From assembly GCA_000697475.1 (NCBI GenBank), contig JNEU01000824.1, positions 143,012-207,011 of the forward strand: a stretch of 64,000 bases of DNA, read 5' to 3'. The notes under the pieces were generated by a model. That model ran no database searches, was not told where the DNA came from, and saw nothing but the letters and a program-made list of their open reading frames with translations. Origin of the DNA: Lichtheimia corymbifera B2541 (Eukaryota > Mucoromycota > Mucoromycetes > Mucorales > Lichtheimiaceae). The translations under genes and the position numbers were made by a program. The stretch's first letter is position 1; every line of letters begins with the position of its first letter. Below, one piece after another: positions 29,967 to 59,410 of the stretch.

Positions 29967-32900
29967 ATGGACGTCGTAAGTCTCAATGCTCTCTATTCAC
30001 TCAAAGAAATTTAACCCATGTAATATTAGAACACTGTTGAAGATCTCTTGGCGAGACTCGCTGCTGCACAAGATTCTGAGACTGTTCTCAACGTGAGTGC
30101 TGCCTGGCAACAAGCTAAAGCCCATTCTCATCGCCCTCTCATTAGGTCACTTCTGCATTGAACACTCAAGTGTACGCCTCACCCCAATGTGTTCCTGCTC
30201 TTGTACAAATCATTAGCAGCTCTCCGAGAGACGAGGTGCGACAACTTGCTGCAGTCGAGCTCCGTAAACGCGTTTCAAAGTGGTGGTTGAAGGTGGATGA
30301 GTCTACACGCGCTCCTCTTCGTAGCCAACTCTTGCAAGTGGTCCTCTCCGAGCAACAGTAAGTATCCATGAATACCAATGGCGTTGTTATAGGGAATGGG
30401 GGAATACTAATCCATTTTGTGGTTGTATAGTCAATTGACTCGCCATGCTATCTCACGTGCTATTTCATCCATTGCTCGCATTGATATTCCCGAGAACCGT
30501 TGGCCCGAGCTCTTGTCTTTCTTGCATCAAGCTACTACCAGTGCTACTGTGAGCCACCGTGAAGTTGGCATGTATTGTATTTATACCCTTTTCGAGGTCG
30601 TTGCCGAATTCTTCATGAACCAAGCTGCTTCCCTCTTTGAACTTTTCGCAAAGACTATTGTTGATCCCGAGAGCCAGGAAGTCCGTGTCACCACCGTGCT
30701 GTAAGTATTGTCAATGTTTGGAATGACGATGGAATGGACTGATTAAAGATAACCTCTAGTGCTCTTGGTAAGATGGCTGAATTCATTGATCCCGAGGATA
30801 AGCAAGATATTGTAAGTCATTCTGCTATGGATATTATAGGCTTGTTTATTCATCTTGAGCTGCTATTCTAGAATGCATTCAAGCAACTGATTCCTCCTAT
30901 GGTCAATGTGCTTGAGCAAGTTTTGAAGAACAGCGATGAAAAGAATGCCGCCGAGATTTTTGAAGTGTTTGACAACTTGTTCATGTTGGTAAGTTTGGGT
31001 CATTGTGTGGGAGTTTAGTAAAATAAGGTCACTCACCAATACGTAACACAGGATACACCTTTCCTTTCTGATCACATGACCGATCTTGTCAGATTCATGC
31101 TTACCGTTGCTGGTAGCCGTGACTTGGATGACAGCCTCCGTGAATTGGCTTTGTCTTCTTTGATGTGGGGTTCCATCTAGTAAGTGCCTTATTCAAAGTA
31201 CTGATACAACATGCATTGACATCGTACATTTATACTTGTAGTAAGCAAAGCAAGATCAAGTCTCTCAAGTTGGTTGGCCCTATCATCGAAAGTGTCATGC
31301 CTATTGGTACAGAAGAGGATCCCGAGGATGTGGATGATGAATCACCTTCCAGAGTAAGTAAACAAGTTAAGGGGAAGATATGGATCCATTTATTAAAGTA
31401 TCGATTTCATAGGCTGCTTTCAAGGTGCTCAATGCACTTGCATCCAACATGCCACCCCAACAAATTGTGCCAATCATGATGCCCATTGTTCTCAACTATA
31501 TGCAAAACCCCTCGGCTGGTCATCGCAAGGCTGCCATGATGAGTGTTGCCGTGATTATTGAAGGTTGTGCCGAGTTTATCTCTACCAGATTGGGTGAACT
31601 TCTTCCTGTGGTTTGCGCAGGTCTTCAAGATCCTGAGGTGATTGTTCGTCGTGCAGCATGCATGGCACTTAGCTGCCTTGCTGAAGAACTTCCTTCTGAA
31701 ATGTCTGAGCACCATCAAACGCTCATGCCCTTGGTGTTCAACCTTTTGAACGAGCCCAACCCTGAAATCACCAAGCACGCATGCAATGCTCTTGATCCTA
31801 TGCTTGATGGTCTCGAAGGTGAAATTCTCCAATATCTTCCTATGCTTATGGAACGCCTTGTTTGGCTTCTTGACAATGCCAATCACACCGAAACCAAGGC
31901 TACCGCTCTTGGTGCTATTGGCAGTGCTGCTCACTCGGCAAACGAATCCTTCCAACCCTACTTCAATGAGGTCATGCCTCGTATTCGTCAACTCATGTCT
32001 GCCACTTCTGGTAACGATGATGGTTTATTGCGTGGTGTTGCTTCCGACACAGCTGGTGCTATTGCTGAAGCTGTTGGTGCCGATGTCTTCCGCCCTCACA
32101 CTCAAGACTTTATGAACCTTGCTATTGAGCAACTCAACCTTGACAGTCCTCGTCTTCGTGAATGCTCTTATGCTTTCTTCTCAGTCATTGCCAGCGTTTT
32201 CCATGAAGAATTTGCACCTTTTCTTCCTACTATCATGCCTGCCATTCTCGCATCCTGCAAGGCTGAAGAGGGTAACGAACCCAACTTGGAAACCGAGATT
32301 GATTTGACAGCTGGTGGCGAAGATGATGAAGACGAAGATGACTTTAGCGCTCTCAACTTCAATTCGGCTATTGCTGATGAAAAGGAGTTTGCTGCTGATG
32401 CTCTTGGTGAGCTCTTTGAAAACACCCGTACACACTTTTTGCCTTATGTTGAGGAATCCGTTGAAGCTCTTATGGAAGCAACTGGCCACTTGTTCGATGG
32501 TGTTCGCAAGGCTGCTCTTGGTAGCTTGTTCACCTACCTCAAAACCTTCCATGCTCTTTCTGGTGCTGCAGACTGGACCCCTGGTTTGCCTGTCAGCTAT
32601 CCTATCCACGAGAATGTACAAAAGATGCTTGGTATCGTCATGCCCACTGTGATGGCCATGTGGTCTGACGAGGATGACAGAATGGTGGCTGTGCAAATTT
32701 GCAAGGAAATGACACAAGCACTCAAGTTGATGGGTCCCTGCGTTGTTGCTGATCGTGAGTATATCTTGCAAATGAATGGGATCCTTCTAGATGATTAACA
32801 AATTTCCATTTCTGTAGATCTGCAAGAGGTTTCCGATCGTATTTTGGAGATCTTTGAAAAGCGTTCAGCTTGCCAGGAGACTTATGACGTTGAGGATCTT

Positions 32901-34275: not shown

Positions 34276-37200
34276 ATGTGGCTCACCCGAAAACTCGTTG
34301 CACTTGCAACGTTTGAGCGAAAGCCCAAGAAGCAAGAACAGCCATCTTCTACGCCAGACTCGAAACAAAAGTCAACCACGTCCAAAAAACATTCGTTTCT
34401 ACCAACAAAAGATAAACATAAGCAGCAGCAACAACAACAACAAAAACAACAATCTCAACCTGTGGCACCAACAGCACCTTCTATCAAAACAACTACAGCT
34501 CCAACAACAGTAGCAGTGGCACCTGACACAAAATCAACAAAGTCCGGAAGATCTGTTAAAACTGGATCTATCAAATCTACCAACACAGTACGCACCGTAG
34601 CAACCGGTACTAGCACAGGGTCATCCAATGATCCAAAAACAAAACCTCTTCCTCCTCTTATACCCAGCCTACCTCCTCAGAAGGTAATTCGTCATGAAAG
34701 AAATAACAGCACCAAATCATCTTGTATATTGAATTGCCAAGGGGTAGGTCTGTGACAAGACAATTGTCGTTGTCATTTCAGGCACTTTAAACATTGGCAA
34801 GTCGACGTTGATCCGCTTGGGACTTCAAAACTTGACAGCGAATTATGATCCAAAAAACGTAACACGTAAGTGTGCCATGCTAAAAAGTGCTTCGGGAGTC
34901 TCCCATCTAGTCAAAAAACCCCCAACATCGGGGTGATGAAATATTGAATGGGAGATGCCTTTTTGGGGGGTGGGTGATTATATCATGCAAGCTGACGCTT
35001 TATCCATGTGTGTATCACAGAATGGCAGTGTCACCGCACCACGATGGTTATTGATCAAGTTCATTATCCTATGGATGTCATTGAAATTGATGATACAATG
35101 ATCAACACCGACCAGGATCCTCCAGAGTTCCCAGAGGTGAGAATAAATCAGGAGATCATGCTCATTGTCTTTGTTGTCCTCCTAAGTGACTCATTGTCTT
35201 TATGAACAAAGGATATTTCAAACGTCCATGGTGGCCTTATCTGCTATGACACCACCAACCGGGATTCAATGGATTGCCTACCGGATTTACTCAGTAAGGC
35301 AAATATTTACATAACAAAGACAACCATTTTGACTCATTCATTGCTGTACCCTTTCTTTTTCTTCTTCTTGTCACAACAGACGCGTACGTGTCACGCAATA
35401 TCCCATCCTACTTGGTAGGCTTAAAAGCAGATTTATCAAGCTTACGTCAAGTCGACCCTGATCTTGGAAGAAAATTGGGAAACCTATTTGGCGTTGAACT
35501 ATTCGAAGTGGATGCATTCTCAGAGGAAGGCACCAAAAAGATGAAAGATATCTACACTATGCTTGTCAAACGTTGCTTACAAGAACATGGCGACGAATTC
35601 CGATCATTGCATACACAACCAGCATCCACTCTACCTTCATCCTCATCTGCCACCACCAGCATTTGCAGCAGTAATGCCGGAGACAATGAAAGTAATATTG
35701 CTATGCGTGAACGACGTATTTCGGGCGACATAGTTTGTCCCACTACACCTCGGCAGAAAGCCGAGGATGATGAAGAGCCAGTACGCCGATCCAGTTTTTC
35801 AAGCGACACAAGCTACTCTTCAGATTATCGTTTCCCTTCATTGTCATCAAAAAAGAAAGCTGCTGCAGCACCCACAGCCGATACAGCCAAAACAGTAACA
35901 GGCTTTGTGTTTGCCCCAACCAGCAATAAAGCAGCAGCTACAACAGCTCCAACTACCGTGGATACCACCACCACCACCCCAACAAAATCATCATTAGATG
36001 ATAAAAGTTCGGTGCATTCCGTTGCAGTGGTACCAATTGAACGCAAGAGTGGTTTACAAAATAATACTTGCAATGGTAGTCGCCGTGGATCAAAGGACAG
36101 CTGGTACGTCATTCACATAGCGTGGAATAAAAGGGGGGTTGTTGATCTGATATCTTGTCCTTTTTTTCCACATCATGTAGCGAATCAATGACTACGGGGT
36201 TGACAGTCGATGATATCATTGATAAACTTTTAACTGCAGATCCGCCCAGATCAGGTAAACGCATAAACGAGACGATGCACATTAATTATTCAACATGTTG
36301 ATAATCCATTGTAGATGAGCACATTGCCACTATATTTATCACCTTCTTTCGACGTTTTATGAAGCCTGCTGATCTTGCACGTATTCTCATTGATCGATTC
36401 GATAGCGATAGTTTGATTGAGCCACCACCCACACGTCTGCAAGAGCGTATCCAGGCCATCTTCCTTATATGGCTCAACAGCTATTGGAATGATTTTCATA
36501 GCCGCCGTACTCGCAAGCTCATTACAAAGTTTTTGAACCGCATTGCCAAAGAGCAAGTGTTACGACCCATCAGCGATTCGCTACGCCCTTTGATAGGACG
36601 CTTACCACCTGTTGAGGATCCAGATGCCCACTGGGGTATGGTGGATGATCAAGACGATGAAGACGACTCAGACTCAGACTCGGATTCGGATGATGATATC
36701 TTTGAAGAGTGTGAGCCGGTCCCAACAGCTGATGATGATGATGCTGATCAAGAGGAAGAAGAAGCACCAGCAGCCGTGACAAGCAAAAACAAAAAGGATA
36801 GCGGCTATTCGGCTGATTCATTCAGCGTGTTTGGCTTTTTTGGCGTTGGTGGTGGTAGTAACAGCAACAACAATGACACCAAGGATACGCAAGATAGCAA
36901 GTCAATTTCCGAGGGATGTAAATTGGATGAGGCAGCAGCACCACCTTTAAAGCGTACATCCAGCTCAAGCTCGTTTAGCCTCTTTGGTCGATCACGCAAA
37001 TCATCCATCTCATCATCCTTTGGATTCCTATTTGGGTTATCTCCCATGACAGCTGCCAAACCTGAACCACAACAACAACAACAACCTTCAGCACCTGAAA
37101 AGAAAGAAAAGCCTGTGCAACACCCACCACAACCACCAGCAACTCCGGAACCCACACCGGTAAAAAAGGTCGTCAATACTCCTGCTGCTGCTGCACCACC

Positions 37201-38596
37201 TCCTTCCCGACCTAAATCACCAGCATTGAGTATCTCATCCTCCACCCATTCTTTACGCCGACGTCCATCCATTGATGTGCGATCCACCACTGATGGGGAA
37301 AACAGCGATAAGCGTGCCAGTAGAGCTGAGTTTGCTGGAGGCTTGATCAATATCGATTTACATTGTGGCATGTCAACTTCACCTAGTTGGACATCTTTTG
37401 GTGCAAATACGGTGGCATCATCAACAACAAGCTATATGAGTACATTCGGCAATAATAATCATCCAACACAGCCTCGGAATGAAAAGGAAGCCAATAATCA
37501 GATTTACAAGATGATGATGGATATCCCGGATAGTGTGATTGCAAACCAACTAACTTGGATTGAAGCTGAATTGTTTGGCAAAATCAAGGTATTTCTTGTA
37601 CACCACATGTATAGCCTTCCTTTAATTAAGTATATGGGACCAATGTAGGCACGTGAATTCATCCGTAATATTTGGGCCCCAGGACAACAATCAAGGCCAT
37701 CTTCTGTGTCATCTGAGGATCAAATCAAAGCTGGTAGTGCTGTGGTTGCATCGATTGCTCATTTCAACTTTATTTCGGCGTGGGTTGCAACTATGATTGT
37801 CACACAAGCCAAGGTGAATAAGCGAGCTGCATTGTTACAAAAGTTCATGTCGATTGCTGTGGTACGTGAAAAACTTGTTGCTTGTCTTTGGTTGCTACTC
37901 ACACTATGAGAAACTTAGGAACTGAGAAACCACAACAACTATAATTCCCTTATGGCTGTATTGGCTGGTCTCAACAGCGCGCCTGTGCTCCGATTAAAGC
38001 AAACAAGAGAAGCAATGACGGATAAAAAGATATACAAGCAATTCCAAAGCTTAGAGCGATTAATGAGCTCAGATAGGTAAATAATAATCTCATCCCATGT
38101 CTGCATGCAGTATGAAGCTCATCTCCGTTGTTGTAGGTCATTCAGCTCTTATCGTCTTGCATTGAAAGCTTCAGAACCACCCGGTGTTCCTTATCTGTAA
38201 GTATTTGTGTCATTGATGGTTGTGATCCTTTTACTAATTGAAGCTATAGTGGTATCCATAATCAAGATTTGATTTCACTCGCTGAAGGCAACAAGGACTT
38301 TCGAGCGGATGGTACGATTCACTGGGATAAGTTCCGGTTAATGGGTGAATGCATTGTAGCCATGATGAAATTCCAATGCCCAGCATATGATATTGAGCCT
38401 GATGGAAGAATCCTACGTTTCATTGCTGACTCAGAAATCTTAAGTGAAGATGTAAGTTGATTCATGGATGGGATGAGCACGTGAATTCATGCTGAGTTAC
38501 TTGCATTAGGAACAATATAAGCGATCGAACCTGGTAGAGCCACGGTTAAAGTCATCAAGCACCAATCGCTTACGCGATCTTTGGTTGCGAATGTAG
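34276..38596 (+). CDS. Ras-like GTPase domain fused to a RasGEF (CDC25-type)
   Basis: Large multi-exon protein of about 1,000-1,100 aa. The N-terminus (MWLTRKLVALATFERKPKKQ) and a Gln/Thr-rich region are followed by a small GTPase-like domain: IVVVISGTLNIGKSTLIRLG (P-loop GxxxxGKST), GGLICYDTTNRDSMDCLPDL (end of the core, like VYDVTNRxSF) and IPSYLVGLKADLSSLR, where the NKxD motif is changed to LKAD. A Ser-rich linker leads to a RasGEF-N-like part (EHIATIFITFFRRFMKPADL, QERIQAIFLIWLNSYWNDFH), then an acidic and low-complexity insert, then the catalytic CDC25 domain: IANQLTWIEAELFGKIKARE, ISAWVATMIVTQAKVNKRAA, NYNSLMAVLAGLNSAPVLRL, PGVPYLGIHNQDLISLAEGN and WDKFRLMGECIVAMMKFQCP. It should activate a Ras/Rap-type GTPase; the internal GTPase domain may regulate it or be the remnant of an activity. 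The stop is at 38594-38596. Confidence 0.88.
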
Positions 38597-38753: not shown

Positions 38754-39929
38754 ATGCTTCTTTCCCACCTCCCCGTTGAAATACTTCACTCTATTGCTTC
38801 CTTTCTTCCACGTTCAAGCATTGCTCAATTGTGCCTTGCTAATCGCCACGTTTATGCAAAGTGTCTTCCAGTGCTATATGCATGCCTTGAACTCAGCTTT
38901 CGTTCGCACATTGAATACATCGTCAATGACCAGCATTCGTTCCTTCGCCATGTGCTTGAGAATCACACGCGACACCTGCACCTTGTATGCCGGCAAAGTG
39001 GGAGTCATGCTATGATAGCCAGTCTTGCACATTGGTTGCCGAATATTCACACGCTCACATTTAGCGACTACCACGTTCTTCCAGCTGATCAACTATGCGA
39101 TCTCTTACAACTGTTTCCCAATATCAGAACTCTTCAATTCCGCTTCTGTCACCTTCAATACACTGGCAATGATACTCATGGAAAGATCAAGGGCACTCTT
39201 ACAAGCATTGATAACTTGGATCTCGTATGGACAGACTTTTCGGATGATGCTATCACCTTACTGCTCGGTAACATGCCCAATCTCGTCCGGGTCCACTTTG
39301 GCACCAACCATAATAGGAATCGTTTCGCGAACAACAATGCGCTTGTAGCCCTTGAAATGCACTGTCTCAACATTCGCAACCTAAGCATATCTCTACAACA
39401 TGTTCAAGAAGATGTCATCTGCGGCGTTATTGTTTCCTATGGTCATCAACTCACACATCTTTCTATACCATGCGAGTCTCCAAGGATATTGGCCGTAATA
39501 GCTACTCATGCATTACAACTTGAGCATTTGATTATCCGGGCAGCGACAACAAGAGAACACGTTACGCACCTGGAAGTAACAAGAAGGAGGCAACCCACCG
39601 CTATCAGCAATACAGTCGCAGCTACAAGTGGATTTTCGCATGCGAGGCTAGGGATGATTCATATTCTACAACAATGTCAAGCATTGGTTTACTTGGAAAT
39701 GACAAGCTGGATGGTGCGAGATATACCATATGAAGTATGGCAATTCTTTCGTCATCAAGAAGGCACACCAGGAATGAATTCAAGCAACAGCTATGAAAAG
39801 TATTATTACCTCAACGATATGGCATGGCGTCGTCGACGTGGTTTACAGCAACATGATGTGGGCTATTTGACCAAAACATTGGCATTGCATACGAGAGAAC
39901 TCTATGAAATCAGAAAGCGCTTACGGTAG
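38754..39929 (+). CDS. F-box protein with leucine-rich-like repeats
   Basis: Intronless, 391 aa, starting at ATG 38754. The N-terminal F-box is MLLSHLPVEILHSIASFLPR followed by SSIAQLCLANRHVYAKCLPV, expected to bind Skp1 in an SCF ubiquitin ligase. Downstream strands such as LPNIHTLTFSDYHVLPADQL, FPNIRTLQFRFCHL, MPNLVRVHFGTNHN and QLTHLSIPCESPRIL recur every 25-35 residues and look like irregular LRRs for substrate binding. The ATG is preceded by a TATAAAAG at 38711 only ~40 bp upstream. The gene is 157 bp downstream of the RasGEF stop on the same strand. The substrate is unknown. Confidence 0.85.
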   Translation: MLLSHLPVEILHSIASFLPRSSIAQLCLANRHVYAKCLPVLYACLELSFRSHIEYIVNDQHSFLRHVLENHTRHLHLVCRQSGSHAMIASLAHWLPNIHTLTFSDYHVLPADQLCDLLQLFPNIRTLQFRFCHLQYTGNDTHGKIKGTLTSIDNLDLVWTDFSDDAITLLLGNMPNLVRVHFGTNHNRNRFANNNALVALEMHCLNIRNLSISLQHVQEDVICGVIVSYGHQLTHLSIPCESPRILAVIATHALQLEHLIIRAATTREHVTHLEVTRRRQPTAISNTVAATSGFSHARLGMIHILQQCQALVYLEMTSWMVRDIPYEVWQFFRHQEGTPGMNSSNSYEKYYYLNDMAWRRRRGLQQHDVGYLTKTLALHTRELYEIRKRLR

Positions 39930-40250
39930 CAGTAATCTACATAGTTACAATCCAAGTTACAATCCAATTATATCAGACAGAATTGCTTTTGGGATAATGT
40001 ATAATAAATGTGAATCTTGAATCCATAGCAACGTTATCGAGCGATCACCATGACATTCTTTTGATAAGACATTTTATATCCACGACCACAACATTTCTAC
40101 ATCCTTTCGTTTATAAATCTTCATGATCTCTTGTAAAAGGTCACGTTCTACCAGTGTAGCTCTTTGCCATACTTCATCGTAAGCACATGTCACGTGACCA
40201 CACGCGAAGAAAAATCAAAAAGAGAACTCTGAAGTCCTTTCAAGGATCAA

Positions 40251-40324
40251 TGCTCACTACAGGGGTCGAACCTGTGACCTTGGCGTTATTAGCACCACGC
40301 TCTAACCAACTGAGCTAAGCGAGC
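40251..40324 (-). tRNA. tRNA-Ile (anticodon AAU)
   Basis: A 74-nt cloverleaf without intron. The acceptor stem GCTCGCT pairs with AGTGAGC (one G-T); D arm GCTCAGTTGGTTAGAGC; anticodon stem TGGTG/CGCCA around loop CTAATAA, so the anticodon is AAT (AAU in RNA, read as Ile after A34-to-I editing). T arm CAGGTTCGACCCCTG with the invariant TTCGA. The discriminator base is A. The variable loop is short. Confidence 0.97.
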
Positions 40325-40643
40325 TTTCCTTTTTAGGCTTGTTGATTTTTTATCGGCGCGGTACATGATATATCACAAAATTTCCATATATAGAAGGTGA
40401 ATCGTTGGCTTCCAGGAAAAACGCACGACATAGCGGAGCACTTATACAATGCAATAATGCGCCTATGAAGATAATATGGGAAGGGGATCACAAGGAATTT
40501 GGGCTAAGGTGTATTTTAAGGAGCTCCGCATCTCAATACGATTGATGATTGCATCTCCCGCATTATGTTCAAACTCAGCGGGCTCACTATAACTCGCTTG
40601 TGGGAGAGCTACTCAGCGACTGAGTGTTCAATTCCTTTCCAAC

Positions 40644-41502
40644 ATGGTAAGCTATATGCATTGCCAACAGCATTTCATTCCACTAACCCTCTCTATCACT
40701 CAATGTAGTCGGTAAGTCTTCGATCGATCAAACTCTCTCATTCAATAACGCTGAATCCACTCTCTCCAGTATTTCCTTCCGCATTTGACCAACGGTAAGT
40801 AAGCGCACGTTTCCAGATCAATCGTGGAAGCTCATTCTCTTTTATTTAAAGGTTGGCAAGTCGACCAGGCAATCCTGTCCGAGGAAGACCGTGTAGTTGT
40901 CATTCGTTTCGGCCACGATTGGGACCCGGTAAGGACTACACTTGCAGCACAGAAACGGATATATTATAAGGTGCTGCTGTGCCACAACGTTCTCACTGAC
41001 TTTTCCATATAGACATGCATGAAAATGGATGAGATCCTTTATAGTATCGCCGAAAAGGTCAAAAACTTTGCTGTCATCTATTTGGTAAGGTCATACAATA
41101 CTATCTTTTATTTGATCTAATAGCCTTTCGTTGTGGATTGAAAAGGTTGACATTACGGAGGTGCCTGATTTCAATAAGGTAAATGGGGGATTTTCTATAA
41201 TGTTCTTCATTTACTGATGATTATCCCGTAGATGTACGAACTCTACGACCCATGCACAACAATGTTCTTCTTCCGAAACAAGCATATCATGGTCGATTTG
41301 GGAACTGGCAACAACAACAAGATCAATTGGGCTCTCGATGATAAATCAGAGATGATCGATTTGATCGAGGTAAGCAAGTTATGATATCAACGTATGGATC
41401 CTAGGCTAAGAGCTATCAATGTAGATCGTGTATCGTGGTGCGAGAAAGGGTCGTGGTCTTGTCGTATCGCTCAAGGATTACTCGACGAAATACAAATATT
41501 AG
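40644..41502 (+). CDS. DIB1: U5 snRNP protein Dib1/Dim1 (TXNL4A family)
   Basis: Thioredoxin-fold spliceosome protein of the U4/U6.U5 tri-snRNP, released on activation; essential for pre-mRNA splicing. Eight exons (40644-40646, 40709-40711, 40770-40794, 40852-40928, 41013-41084, 41146-41178, 41232-41369, 41425-41502) total 429 nt, i.e. exactly 142 aa, the family length. The joined N-terminus is MSYFLPHLTNGWQVDQAIL, the invariant family start. Further marks are DRVVVIRFGHDWDP, CMKMDEILYSIAEKVKNFAV, IYLVDITEVPDFNKMYELYD, CTTMFFFRNKHIMVDLGTGN and NNKINWALDDKSEMIDLIE, ending in a basic tail. The first coding exon is just ATG and the second just TCG. All donors are GTAAGx-like. tRNA-Ile lies on the opposite strand ~320 bp upstream. 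Confidence 0.95.
40709..40711 (+). other. 3-nt microexon (TCG, Ser2) of DIB1
   Basis: The order is ATG|GTAAGC...CAATGTAG|TCG|GTAAGTC...CTCTCCAG|TATTTCC. Both flanking introns (62 and 58 nt) have good signals, and the resulting MSYFLPHL is the near-invariant Dim1 start. Skipping it would keep the frame and give MYFLPHL. Confidence 0.8.
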
Positions 41503-42430: not shown

Positions 42431-44112
42431 CTATTCTACACGTCTCTTCTTGTTTTCATTTACAGCTTGGGACATGAGGCTTTCAATCTCGTCAACCTCC
42501 TTGGGAACGGTGGTCAAATTCACATATCCATCCTCGGTGATGAGAAGGTTATCTTCGATACGGACACCACCAACTGACTTGTACTTGTTCAACATGTCAA
42601 CGTTGATATATTGGCTGGTCTCAGGAGACTTGACCACGGGGTCAATAATGAAATCGCAAAAGTAGACACCAGGCTCCACGGTCACAACGTTGCCAGCAGC
42701 AAGGGTGCGTCGCATGCGAAGGTAACGATAGCTTGGGCGGTTGATACGCTCAACACCAGCAGGATAACCACCAACATCGTGAACATCCAAACCAAGCATG
42801 TGGCCAACTATGTTGCATGGTTAATTACGTCTTCGTTCTCTTAATCAATTGGTGCTACTTACTGCCATGAGGGAAGAACGCGGCAACAACATCCTTTTCC
42901 AAGAGAGTCTGCTTGTCACCAACAAGGATACCAGCCTTCAAAAGACCATCGCATGCAACTTGGAGTGCAGTTTCGTGGATCTCTTCCCATGCAACACCAG
43001 CCTTACACTTGGCGAAACAGGCCTACATTCGATACGACATTCCATTAGCGGGCATGAATAAAGTCACCACGTCAAATAGTTTAAACCTTATTACCTTTTG
43101 CATCTCAAGGACAATGTTGTAAATAACCTTAGCTTCGGGAGTAAACTTGCCATTGGCAGGGAAGGTGCGGGTGATGTCGGAAGTGTAGTACTCATATTCA
43201 GCACCAGCGTCGACCAAGATAACATCCGTTGAGTTGATAGTGGCGTTGTTTTTACCATAGTGCAAGGTAGCGGCGTTTTTACCAGCACCAAAGATGGGCA
43301 AATAAGATTGGAAGAAGGCGCCTTGGCGGGTACATTCTTATCCAGTATGAATTAGTATTAGCCTGTATCCTTCCTTCCAAATCATACGATTGTAGCTTAC
43401 CATTGAGGAAGACAGAGTGCAATTCTCTCTCATTCATATCAGGGCGGCATGCTTCCATAACCTACCATTTCATCCGTTAATATGATATACAACAAAAAGA
43501 TCACCTCAATATATACCTTGGCATGGGCATCGGATGAGATCTTGTTCGATTGACGAATAATGTCAACTTCCCAGTCAGCCTTGATAGCACGAGCCTCACA
43601 GAAAGCAGCATACAACTTCTTCTTATCCTCATCGCCGGCAAGTTTAACACGCTCAGTGTCAAGCAAATCGGTCTTGGCAATAGGGATGGTGTACACCACA
43701 TTGGATTCAGCCAAACGCTTGTTGAGATCATCGACATAAAGAGCTTCATCGACATCATACTTGGATTGCAAGGTCTCAAGGCTATCAGGCAAGCCCATCC
43801 AAATCACATCATCAGGATTGACAGCAGGGGCAAACAATTGAATACGTTGGGTAGCAATATCAATGACAACGTGGAAACCAGGTTCGGCAACACCTTGAAA
43901 GGAAAAAGAATATGCATGAGTTGGTATTGTTGGAATGAGGAGGAGTGTACTTGTATACCTGTCAAATAATAAAAGTTGCTCTCTTGACGGAATGGGAGCT
44001 CGCAATCGGTGTCATCGCGTTCATGGACCACTTGGCCATTGAGGTAAATGGCACCACTGGTTTGACCAAAGTGTTCGAGGATCTTCTTGACGTTTTGGCG
44101 CGTAGGCAACAT
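42431..44112 (-). CDS. PEPD: Xaa-Pro dipeptidase (prolidase, M24B)
   Basis: Mn-dependent peptidase that splits dipeptides with C-terminal proline, recycling proline in the cytosol. About six exons and ~480 aa are visible. The N-terminal domain contains ELPFRQESNFYYLTGVAEPG and DVIWMGLPDSLETLQSKYDV. The pita-bread catalytic domain contains IIRQSNKISSDAHAKVMEAC, FGAGKNAATLHYGKNNATIN, VILVDAGAEYEYYTSDITRT (two metal Asp), [20 protein letters not shown] (metal His), NVVTVEPGVYFCDFIIDP (metal Glu) and GGVRIEDNLLITEDGYVNLT (metal Glu). All five ligands are present. The start at 44112 (MLPTRQNVKKILEHFG) is the first ATG in frame, but relatives have ~25 residues more before it, and the frame is open upstream (KILVQPLFRIFFPRKS), so a further 5' exon is likely. 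The end is a basic NENKKRRVE tail. Confidence 0.9.
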
Positions 44113-57188: not shown

Positions 57189-59410
57189 CTATTTGGTTGA
57201 AGTTGACGAGAAGTCAGAGTCATTGTTGTCGCCATTTTGTGTGGAGGAGCTGGTATCTTGCTTATCATCGCTATTTTCTTTGGCGTTGTCTTGGGTATCA
57301 TTGTTGCTGGTCGATGGTTCTTGGTCAGTTGATTCATTCTTTTTGTCGTCAGCAGCTTCCTCTTCATCACTGCTGCTGTTGTCGTTGTCGCTATCGTTTT
57401 GTCGCCGCTTGCGACGATGGTCACGGTCCTTTTGTTTCTTCTCTTGTTTTTGTTTCTCATGTTCCTCTGCTTGCTTACGATCCAACTTGACCTTCTCCAA
57501 GAACTCGGGGATATCATTGAAAAGACGATCGTATAAACCTTCCTCAGGGTTTTCAGCATCAGCTTCCATCCAAAGAGTGATAAAGTAATTCTCGAGTTCG
57601 GCCGTAGTAACATGGTTCTCGGGAAGTGCATTGGCAAACTTCTTCATCAATGATTGCACGTATTCCTTACGCTCACCATCCAACATGGGCTCCAAGGTAT
57701 CAGGATCATGTCCAAAGAACTGCCAGAACATATCTTGAATTTGTCCACGATCAGCGTAATCCAATTTAAGCTTTACATCCATGCGACCAGGACGCAACAA
57801 GGCCGGTGGAAGCTTGGTGATATCATTGCACGTCATAAAGATCACTGAGGGAATCGAAATATCAGCATTTACCATGAATGAAAAGAAACGGGGATTTTTA
57901 CTTACTCGATCCAGATTGACCTTGGATACCATCCAAAGCATTCAACATGCCAGCAACACTAACACCAGTGCGTTCGTGTGACTCGGACAACTTGTGGATA
58001 TAATGATCAAAATCTTCCAGGACAACCAAACAATTGCTGGGGACATCGCTCAACATGTCACTGAATTCAGAATCTGAAAACATGTCAAGCAAACTTGCAA
58101 TGCCAATATCCATGCCCAAATTTGACTACCGAGATTGTGAGTTTTTATGCACACATTTGTTTTGATAAACAAAGAATGATACGTACTGCCAAAGCCTGAA
58201 TCAGTGATGTTTTACCAGTACCAGGGGGACCATACAACAAGTAGCCACGTCTATATGGGACACCACGTGTCTTATACCAGCGCTTTCGGCGACGGAAACG
58301 CTCCATATCTAGCAATAATAACGTATGTATGCATGAGTTGCTATGCTCACGCTAATAACGTATCCATGAATGCTTACCATTAACAATTTTCTCTTTGAGG
58401 CCCGCCTTCAAAGCTACGGTAGAAATGGGTCTTGGATCCATTGATTTGTAATACTCCCAGGAGCTATAGTTGCCCATATATTTGTGGATGGTGATCTACT
58501 AGCAAGTTAGTATCCCTTTCACCTTACTGCCAATCAAAGTTACTATTTACCTCTTCAGTCTGACGATCATTGTAAATATCGGTCCATTCTTGAATAAATT
58601 GTTTCAGCAGATCAAGAGAATCATGCTCCATTCTAATAAATAGTGGTCAAGATAGATGTTCAAACGATCATTTGTAGCGTATCTTCACTTACGAGATTTC
58701 CAATGTGCGAGTGACAAATCTGCCACGGAACATGCTTCCTTCAATAACAGACTCCTCATCATCTTTGGGCTTCTTGATAGTGCGCCACGTCACTCGAAGG
58801 GTGTAGCCCTTGTACTCAATCTCATTGCTCGTTTCCTCGGCTAATGTATCATGGTTATTATATATGCAAAGCACTATCATACCAAATGCTATATGCCTTA
58901 CGTGGATAAAATTGCACCAGAGATTTCTTGTTGTTGTTGTTGCTATCTTCTGTTTGGTCATCAGACTCCTCATCATTGGAATCTTCAAAGGTGGCAAATA
59001 CACGAGTCAAATCAGGGATTGTTCTGATCTTGCGTCGTACAAAGTCATCCACAGCCGTGTATGCTCGATCGTGGGTGATCAATTCCACCGATACAACAGG
59101 GGGCTGAGGCTTTCTCAATTTTTCCAAGATGTGTTGTAATAAGTCGGTCCACTTTGTACGTAACAGAGCTATGATATGGATCCTTGTATCAGCATTGATG
59201 CAACCACTTTTGGGAATGGTACTCACTTGAAATATAAAATACAGCGCTGAGAATCACAAAGTCATTTCCAAAGTAGCGTTTGGCAAGATTGACAAGCCTG
59301 GGGCCCATCATGCTTTCCCAGAAGGACTCATCGAGCACTTTCTCCAACAGAGTGAGCAAGGTGTCGATTGCACGTGTCGACGATTGGATCAATGATGACT
59401 GCGCAGGCAT
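57189..59410 (-). CDS. BCS1-like AAA ATPase
   Basis: Member of the BCS1 group of AAA proteins; true Bcs1 inserts the Rieske protein into mitochondrial complex III, while several fungal paralogues have unknown roles. About nine exons and ~650 aa. The N-terminus [20 protein letters not shown] leads into the BCS1-N region ([15 protein letters not shown], then [19 protein letters not shown] and [20 protein letters not shown]). The AAA module has Walker [21 protein letters not shown], Walker [15 protein letters not shown], sensor [20 protein letters not shown] with the arginine-finger region, and SGSSVIF before it. A long C-terminal tail (about 110 residues) is rich in Glu/Lys then Asp/Ser/Asn ([20 protein letters not shown], later [20 protein letters not shown]), which normal Bcs1 lacks. 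The start at 59410 is the first ATG. It converges on the INTS13-like gene with 87 bp between stop codons. Confidence 0.88.

What the first reader, a model, noticed from the sequence alone, without database searches (positions are those of the whole stretch)
40644..40794. A 3-nt coding exon, next to an exon that codes only the start Met, in DIB1
The invariant family N-terminus MSYFLPHL is encoded as ATG | TCG | TATTTCCTTCCG..., with a 62-nt and a 58-nt intron on either side of TCG. Both have textbook donors (GTAAGC, GTAAGT) and acceptors (TGTAG, CCAG). The total then is exactly 142 aa. Three-nucleotide exons are at the limit of exon definition, and it is striking that it lies in a core splicing factor. 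Skipping would be in frame, removing one Ser, so the exon could be alternatively used.
Basis: partly seen in the sequence, partly recalled or inferred. Interest (0 to 1): 0.8.

Follow-up and report, generated by a model that had tools for sequence, protein, structure and literature searches.

The report
Three-base exon in fungal splicing gene
In a fungal gene for the core splicing protein DIB1, the second amino acid seems to be encoded by an exon of only three bases squeezed between two ordinary short introns; such tiny exons are known elsewhere, so this is a neat new example and not a new kind of thing.

Summary
DIB1 is encoded on the + strand as eight coding exons of 3, 3, 25, 77, 72, 33, 138 and 78 nt; the product is 142 aa and aligns end to end with U5-15kD/hDim1. 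TCG (Ser2) is the only in-frame internal exon possible between ATG and exon 3 with introns of 45 nt or more. Chance gives AG-Ser-GT there in about 0.3-0.6% of cases; no other place in a 259-kb sample has sites as strong. No two-codon ATG-Ser start exon lies in 39000-40769. The Met-only exon belongs to a described class, start-codon introns. Exons of 3 nt, and of 1 nt (one fungal), are in print. Alternative use is unsupported: intron lengths, relative acceptor strength and a near-invariant Ser/Ala at residue 2 favour constant inclusion, but a Rhizopus protein annotated MYF... and the weak acceptor of intron 2 keep skipping open. No transcript data were available, so splicing is inferred, not shown. 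Verdict: very probably a real, usually included 3-nt coding exon; a new member of a known kind.

The parts
40644..40646 (+). Coding exon 1: start codon ATG only (its 5' UTR part is not delimited)
   Evidence: no ATG-TCN-GT or ATG-AGY-GT start exon in 39000-40769
40647..40708 (+). Intron 1, 62 nt, phase 0, start-codon intron; GTAAGC...TGTAG, branch-point-like CTAAC 22 nt from its end
   Evidence: donor 9.5 bits (66th percentile of 38 training donors), acceptor 4.3 bits (13th percentile)
40709..40711 (+). Coding exon 2: TCG (Ser2), the 3-nt microexon
   Evidence: only in-frame AG|exon|GT between ATG and exon 3 with both introns at least 45 nt; supplies the Ser/Ala found at residue 2 in 228 of 230 readable relatives
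40712..40769 (+). Intron 2, 58 nt, phase 0; GTAAGT...TCCAG, branch-point-like CTGAA (4 of 5 consensus positions) 15 nt from its end
   Evidence: donor 11.5 bits, equal to the best training donors; acceptor -0.1 bits, below all 38 training acceptors
40770..40794 (+). Coding exon 3, 25 nt, YFLPHLTN plus one base, itself a microexon by a 30-nt definition
40852..40928 (+). Coding exon 4, 77 nt
41013..41084 (+). Coding exon 5, 72 nt
41146..41178 (+). Coding exon 6, 33 nt
41232..41369 (+). Coding exon 7, 138 nt
41425..41502 (+). Coding exon 8, 78 nt with stop TAG

Best explanation
TCG at 40709-40711 is a genuine 3-nt coding exon of DIB1, included in all or nearly all mRNA. A start-codon intron (intron 1) lies exactly one codon upstream of a second intron (intron 2), leaving the codon for Ser2 as an exon of its own. 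Both introns are of ordinary size for this genome and are most likely recognised one at a time by intron definition; a complex on one blocks the neighbouring sites 3 nt away. Once intron 1 is removed, ATGTCG with the 5' UTR is a normal upstream exon for intron 2 (or the reverse order). The product begins MSYFLPHL; Ser2 would allow Met removal and N-terminal acetylation as in other MS- proteins (recalled, not tested). Shown here: the sequence anatomy, the full-length family match, the uniqueness of the TCG solution, the splice-site scores. Inferred: actual splicing, its order, constitutive use, and the N-terminal processing.
For: Spliced CDS gives exactly 142 aa aligning 1-142 with 1qgv. Only in-frame internal exon possible with both introns at least 45 nt. 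Chance of AG-Ser-GT there 0.3-0.6%, far lower with the site strengths. Lengths 62 and 58 nt match the median of 62 (33 kept introns), while the single-intron alternative of 123 nt exceeds 36 of the 39 raw inferences. No two-codon ATG-Ser exon followed by GT in 39000-40769. One DIB1 locus found in the 34.98-Mb assembly. Relatives, all read from annotated or predicted proteins: an Umbelopsis-like JGI protein (P0122) reads ...TFSQ then YFLPHL, that is CAR then TAY, as expected for a read-through intron ending CAG right before codon 3. Rhizopus microsporus P0088 starts MYF, as a gene finder would produce if an intron follows ATG directly and a 3-nt exon is missed. Rhizomucor pusillus P0036 has an unrelated N-terminus up to GW, as expected when a 3-nt and a 25-nt exon are missed.
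Against: No transcript was seen. The acceptor of intron 2 is weaker than all 38 training acceptors, and that of intron 1 is at the 13th percentile. The training set is small, favours GTAAGT and YAG by construction, holds three poorly supported introns, and two of the 39 raw inferences share one acceptor. P0088 can equally mean a true loss of Ser2 in Rhizopus. In Powellomyces (P0043) the nearby intron seems to lie 1 nt earlier, in phase 2 (my reading), so the intron 2 position is not clearly ancient. No DNA of another Mucoromycota DIB1 gene could be read: viral contigs gave no relative and genome contigs only two loci in bacterial MAGs, both with MSF in one piece and no intron there.
Confidence: 0.85

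Rival explanations
1. The 3-nt exon is real but regulated: a functional fraction of transcripts skip it in frame and make MYFLPHL..., a protein without Ser2 that keeps its initiator Met. (Not fully exclusive with the best explanation, so the odds do not sum to 1.)
For: Skipping keeps the frame. 283 of 411 Drosophila microexons in the exon-microexon-exon mode are alternatively spliced (PMC8042270, passages). A Rhizopus microsporus protein is annotated MYFIPHL (P0088). Both acceptors are on the weak side.
Against: Skipping needs a 123-nt intron ending in the weakest acceptor, while inclusion uses 62- and 58-nt introns. Ser/Ala at residue 2 in 228 of 230 readable relatives. P0088 is an annotation, not a transcript.
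Confidence: 0.12
2. TCG is not an exon: a single 123-nt intron joins ATG to TAT and this species simply lacks Ser2.
For: Both outer sites exist; the annotated Rhizopus microsporus protein has this form; introns over 100 nt were inferred in 3 of 39 raw cases.
Against: Then an acceptor, the right codon and a consensus donor, with a branch-point-like CTAAC upstream, would lie inside the intron by chance (0.3-0.6% for AG-Ser-GT alone), and this species would break a residue near-invariant in the family.
Confidence: 0.04
3. The N-terminus comes from another upstream exon that supplies a different start, and ATG 40644 and TCG 40709 are not used.
For: The 5' end of the transcript is unknown; ATGs lie upstream at 40565, 40545, 40476 and others.
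Against: No ATG-Ser two-codon exon with a GT after it in 39000-40769; the model given already yields the family length and start. Upstream starts with longer first exons were not enumerated in full.
Confidence: 0.03
4. Introns 1 and 2 form a spliceosomal twin intron (stwintron) and not two introns around an exon.
For: Stwintrons are known in fungi and are excised by consecutive reactions (search listing and starts of abstracts).
Against: Each intron has its own complete donor and acceptor and a whole codon stays between them; no splice element is interrupted.
Confidence: 0.01

Closest known systems
One-nt exon of CYP621A in Fusarium (PMC12940212; first of three parts of the text read)
   Same: Ultra-small coding exon in a fungus, inferred from a conserved motif and an intron about twice the usual length
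   Different: 1 nt and frame-essential, confirmed there by SRA reads; here 3 nt, frame-neutral, no reads
One-nt exon of Arabidopsis APC11 (PMC4674806; first of three parts of the text read)
   Same: Constitutive ultra-small coding exon in a small conserved protein
   Different: Plant; tested with reporter constructs; the base lies 333 nt into a 422-nt interval, so the introns are longer than here
Three-nt animal microexons: homothorax (PMC7392893), RPS24 (PMC11162997, PMC12686416), troponin T and Ncam (named in PMC8042270)
   Same: Exon of one codon
   Different: homothorax, RPS24 and troponin T are described as alternatively spliced (for Ncam the passage does not say); this one is predicted to be constant. 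Seen only as search listing and starts of abstracts and passages
Start-codon introns (PMC1626468; abstract and passages)
   Same: Phase 0 intron between codons 1 and 2 in a short conserved protein; reported in fungi among others
   Different: Here a second phase 0 intron follows one codon later
Twenty-nt Xlr2 microexon switch of Trichoderma (PMC11121469; abstract and passages)
   Same: Fungal microexon
   Different: 20 nt and glucose-regulated; regulation here was not testable

Membership tests
DIB1/DIM1 (U5-15kD) family | DIM1 domain over the curated cut-off and full-length match | tested here: met
   PF02966 230.1 bits vs 27; 1-142 to 1-142 with 1qgv, E 2.7e-90
Start-codon intron class | Phase 0 intron directly after the ATG in a short conserved protein | tested here: met
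   ATG|GTAAGC at 40647; 142 aa; class described in PMC1626468; by sequence only
Start-codon intron class | Protein without signal peptide | not tested
   No signal-peptide prediction was run; DIB1 is a nuclear protein (recalled)
Coding microexon (30 nt or less, flanked by two introns) | AG|exon|GT with plausible sites on both sides | tested here: met
   Site scores and uniqueness; by sequence only
Coding microexon (30 nt or less, flanked by two introns) | Inclusion in mature mRNA | not testable with these tools
   No RNA reads are held
Regulated (alternative) microexon | Both included and skipped isoforms made | not testable with these tools
   Only indirect evidence: site strengths, conservation of residue 2
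Stwintron | An internal intron interrupts a splice element of an external intron | tested here: not met
   Both introns have complete sites and TCG lies between them
Microexon conserved among Mucorales | Same ATG|codon|TAT structure in related species | tested here: inconclusive
   Only proteins: P0088 MYF, P0036 broken start, P0122 read-through before codon 3; no DNA of such relatives

The most novel reading that the evidence does not exclude
The Ser2 microexon of DIB1 is conserved in Mucorales as a built-in sensor of splicing quality. DIB1 mRNA needs two consecutive splicing events around 3 nt, so when tri-snRNP activity falls, skipping rises and makes a Met-Tyr form of DIB1 with altered N-terminal processing, which feeds back on spliceosome activation.
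Probability: 0.04. Interest if true: 0.75.

Novelty: new member of a known kind. Interest (0 to 1): 0.36.

Why it matters
If transcripts confirm it, this is a clean natural case of a one-codon exon in a short-intron fungus, useful for testing how two splice sites 3 nt apart are used in sequence without exon definition. It also warns annotators: public DIB1 models of Rhizopus microsporus and Rhizomucor pusillus may have lost or mangled their N-termini here. It does not open a new class.

Tried and rejected
Tried: viral contigs (no relative) and genome contigs (two loci in bacterial MAGs whose N-termini read MSF in one piece) for DNA of related genes. A search with the exon-skipped protein, residues 1-44, to bring out MYF-type relatives: none among the 120 listed of 663 (checked; P0088 itself was not in that list). 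A C-terminal search, residues 72-142 (120 listed of 3162), to bring out mis-annotated Mucoromycota N-termini: P0036 again, and P0226 and P0261, both broken at the start. P0261 (Mortierella alpina): a frame-shift test fits ATG-Ser-Tyr in a row (0 of 500 shuffles fit), but the protein may come from a spliced model, so it does not show absence of introns; left out of the argument. Origin by duplication of one intron: introns 1 and 2 are no more alike than shuffles (286 of 1000 shuffles score as high); rejected. Other ATG|intron|3 nt|GTAAG places in the whole genome: three forward matches, none reverse, and one match of the reversed control pattern. One is DIB1; in the second the GTAAG reads as coding sequence inside an internal exon (by eye), and in the third the 3 nt are a stop codon. 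So DIB1 is the only credible one under that pattern, which covers only GTAAG donors, YAG acceptors and intron 1 of 52-68 nt. One search's chance scan counted this locus five times through overlapping loci; one search replaces it.

Papers: 10 of 10 searches used. Microexon together with mucor, rhizopus or mucoromycota gave 6, 3 and 2 papers, none on this by title and start of abstract; of these, passages of PMC4739763 were opened and were on other matters. The broader searches listed 30 of 51, 30 of 54, 5 of 5 and 13 of 13 papers; no title or abstract start named a DIB1 microexon. None of these searches named DIB1; the one that did (with N-terminus and spliceosome, 5 papers) did not name microexons. 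So absence from print is not shown, only not seen.

Full report
What was checked. The window lies at the end of a 207,011-base contig of a 34.98-Mb, 432-contig assembly. The gene at 40644-41502 (+) splices to 429 nt and 142 aa. The protein is DIB1/DIM1: Pfam DIM1 230.1 bits, cut-off 27, and 1-142 to 1-142 with U5-15kD/hDim1. One locus was found in the assembly: the four matches are exons of this gene. Kin: the three best hits to residues 72-142 are Gongronella butleri, Umbelopsis and Rhizomucor pusillus. Full-length identity is 93% to Gongronella and 92% to Umbelopsis, but animals also reach 92%, so Mucoromycota is likely and the order is not proved.

The 3-nt exon. Between the ATG and the TAT that begins YFLPHL lie 123 nt. 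I enumerated every AG|exon|GT there with both introns at least 45 nt: two exist, TCG (in frame, Ser) and a 7-nt one (out of frame, donor -5.3 bits). TCG gives the family's residue 2. In 298 fetched relatives (the 120 listed of 4463, of 663 and of 3162 hits, with overlap), 230 could be read at this place by my pattern: 218 MS, 10 MA and 2 (P0043, P0122) that look like read-through from upstream; 68 could not be read, among them P0088, which starts MYF, and truncated models. The lists hold many animals.

Is it more than chance? I used 63 of the 78 chaperonin and proteasome matches to infer 39 introns in the same genome, kept 33 (donor GTA or GTG, at most 110 nt; 6 dropped, three of them over 110 nt) and added the 5 other DIB1 introns. 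The inference rewards consensus sites, three of the kept introns score 3.0 or less, and two of the 39 share an acceptor, so the profile is rough. Median length of the 33 is 62 nt. The donors of introns 1 and 2 score 9.5 and 11.5 bits (66th percentile, and equal to the best); acceptor 1 scores 4.3 (13th percentile); acceptor 2 scores -0.1, below all 38. In 259,162 bases (37 sources, both strands) AG-Ser-GT occurs at a rate that gives 0.0034 in the 21 allowed positions; Markov-1 sequences give 0.0061. With sites at the 10th percentile of training or better, the simulation gives 4e-5 for Ser; in the sample no other Ser case reaches that, and five with other codons do. With sites as strong as seen there is no other 3-nt case of any codon.

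The Met-only exon is ordinary. An excess of phase 0 introns right after the start codon is described for vertebrates, arthropods, fungi and plants, in relatively short conserved proteins (PMC1626468, abstract and passages). In this genome sample ATG precedes GTAAGY in 19 of 300 cases, against 41 of 1322 for six scrambled hexamers (Fisher p 0.011); the 19 include ATG codons that are not starts, so this is weak support. A gene that looks like chaperonin 10 (identity recalled) has ATG, a 55-nt intron, then TCT GCT GCC.

How rare is it here? A whole-genome pattern for ATG|GTAAG, an intron of 52-68 nt, YAG, 3 nt, GTAAG gave three forward matches and one match of the reversed control; reading the two others by eye leaves DIB1 as the only credible case. 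The pattern covers only part of the possible sites.

How it most likely works. Intron definition on two short introns, one after the other. Sites 3 nt apart can hardly be held by two complexes at once (inference), so the order must be sequential; removal of intron 1 first leaves ATGTCG behind a 5' UTR exon. Skipping would need donor 1 to pair over 123 nt with the weakest acceptor, so inclusion should dominate. Keeping intron 1 gives a stop after 28 residues; keeping intron 2 shifts the frame (no stop in the 40 residues printed). The product of skipping would begin MYF; loss of Ser2 would change Met removal and acetylation (recalled principle).

Relatives. P0122, from a JGI metagenome contig and one residue from Umbelopsis P0007 over the shared part, reads ...HTFSQ then YFLPHL, consistent with an intron ending CAG just before codon 3, and ...DFNK then VKYHG at the place of this gene's intron 6. 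P0043 (Powellomyces) reads MSYVSTT...SRYFLPHL, best explained by an intron in phase 2 inside codon 2 (ATGTC|GTAYGT...AG|R). P0036 and P0088 look like gene models that missed the 3-nt exon, but P0088 could also be a real loss. These are readings of proteins, not of DNA.

What is known. Three-nt exons are in print for animals and one-nt exons for Arabidopsis APC11 and Fusarium CYP621A. PMC11121469 says in its abstract that functional microexons had not been described in filamentous fungi before it (2024), while a passage adds that they had been tested in S. pombe. A 3-nt exon in a fungal spliceosome gene is therefore a new member of a known kind. The bolder reading, a feedback sensor through skipping, has no direct evidence.

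Noticed in passing
window 40251-40324 (-): tRNA-Ile (anticodon AAT), the only tRNA ARAGORN found in the window, about 320 nt upstream of the DIB1 ATG.
   Followed up: no
window 40770-40794 and 41146-41178: Two further very small DIB1 exons, 25 and 33 nt; the first 31 coding bases are spread over three exons.
   Followed up: partly
window 40565-40708 (+): An out-of-frame upstream ATG at 40565 opens a reading frame that overlaps the DIB1 ATG; a possible overlapping uORF if transcription starts that far up.
   Followed up: no
P0088, P0036: Annotated Rhizopus microsporus and Rhizomucor pusillus DIB1 proteins have no Ser2 or an unrelated N-terminus; possibly missed small exons.
   Followed up: partly
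L041, L042: Eukaryote-like DIB1 genes on contigs of two bacterial MAGs (Crocinitomicaceae, Verrucomicrobiaceae): probable contamination.
   Followed up: no
G000:C55:1816-2438 and G000:C290:88848-89470: Proteasome matches with identical spacing and scores on two contigs, a sign of duplicated or uncollapsed sequence in the assembly.
   Followed up: no
L044 2272 onward: A chaperonin-10-like gene (identity recalled) with a 55-nt start-codon intron, ATG|...|TCTGCTGCC.
   Followed up: partly
window 35298-37645 (+): Of 10 long frames scanned (of 21 listed): a Ras match below cut-off (35298-36188) and a RasGEF N-terminal match (36305-37645) upstream of DIB1, HEAT repeats at 31413-32795, an aminopeptidase P N-terminal domain at 43442-44011 (-) and a BCS1 lid domain at 57192-57941 (-).
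   Followed up: no
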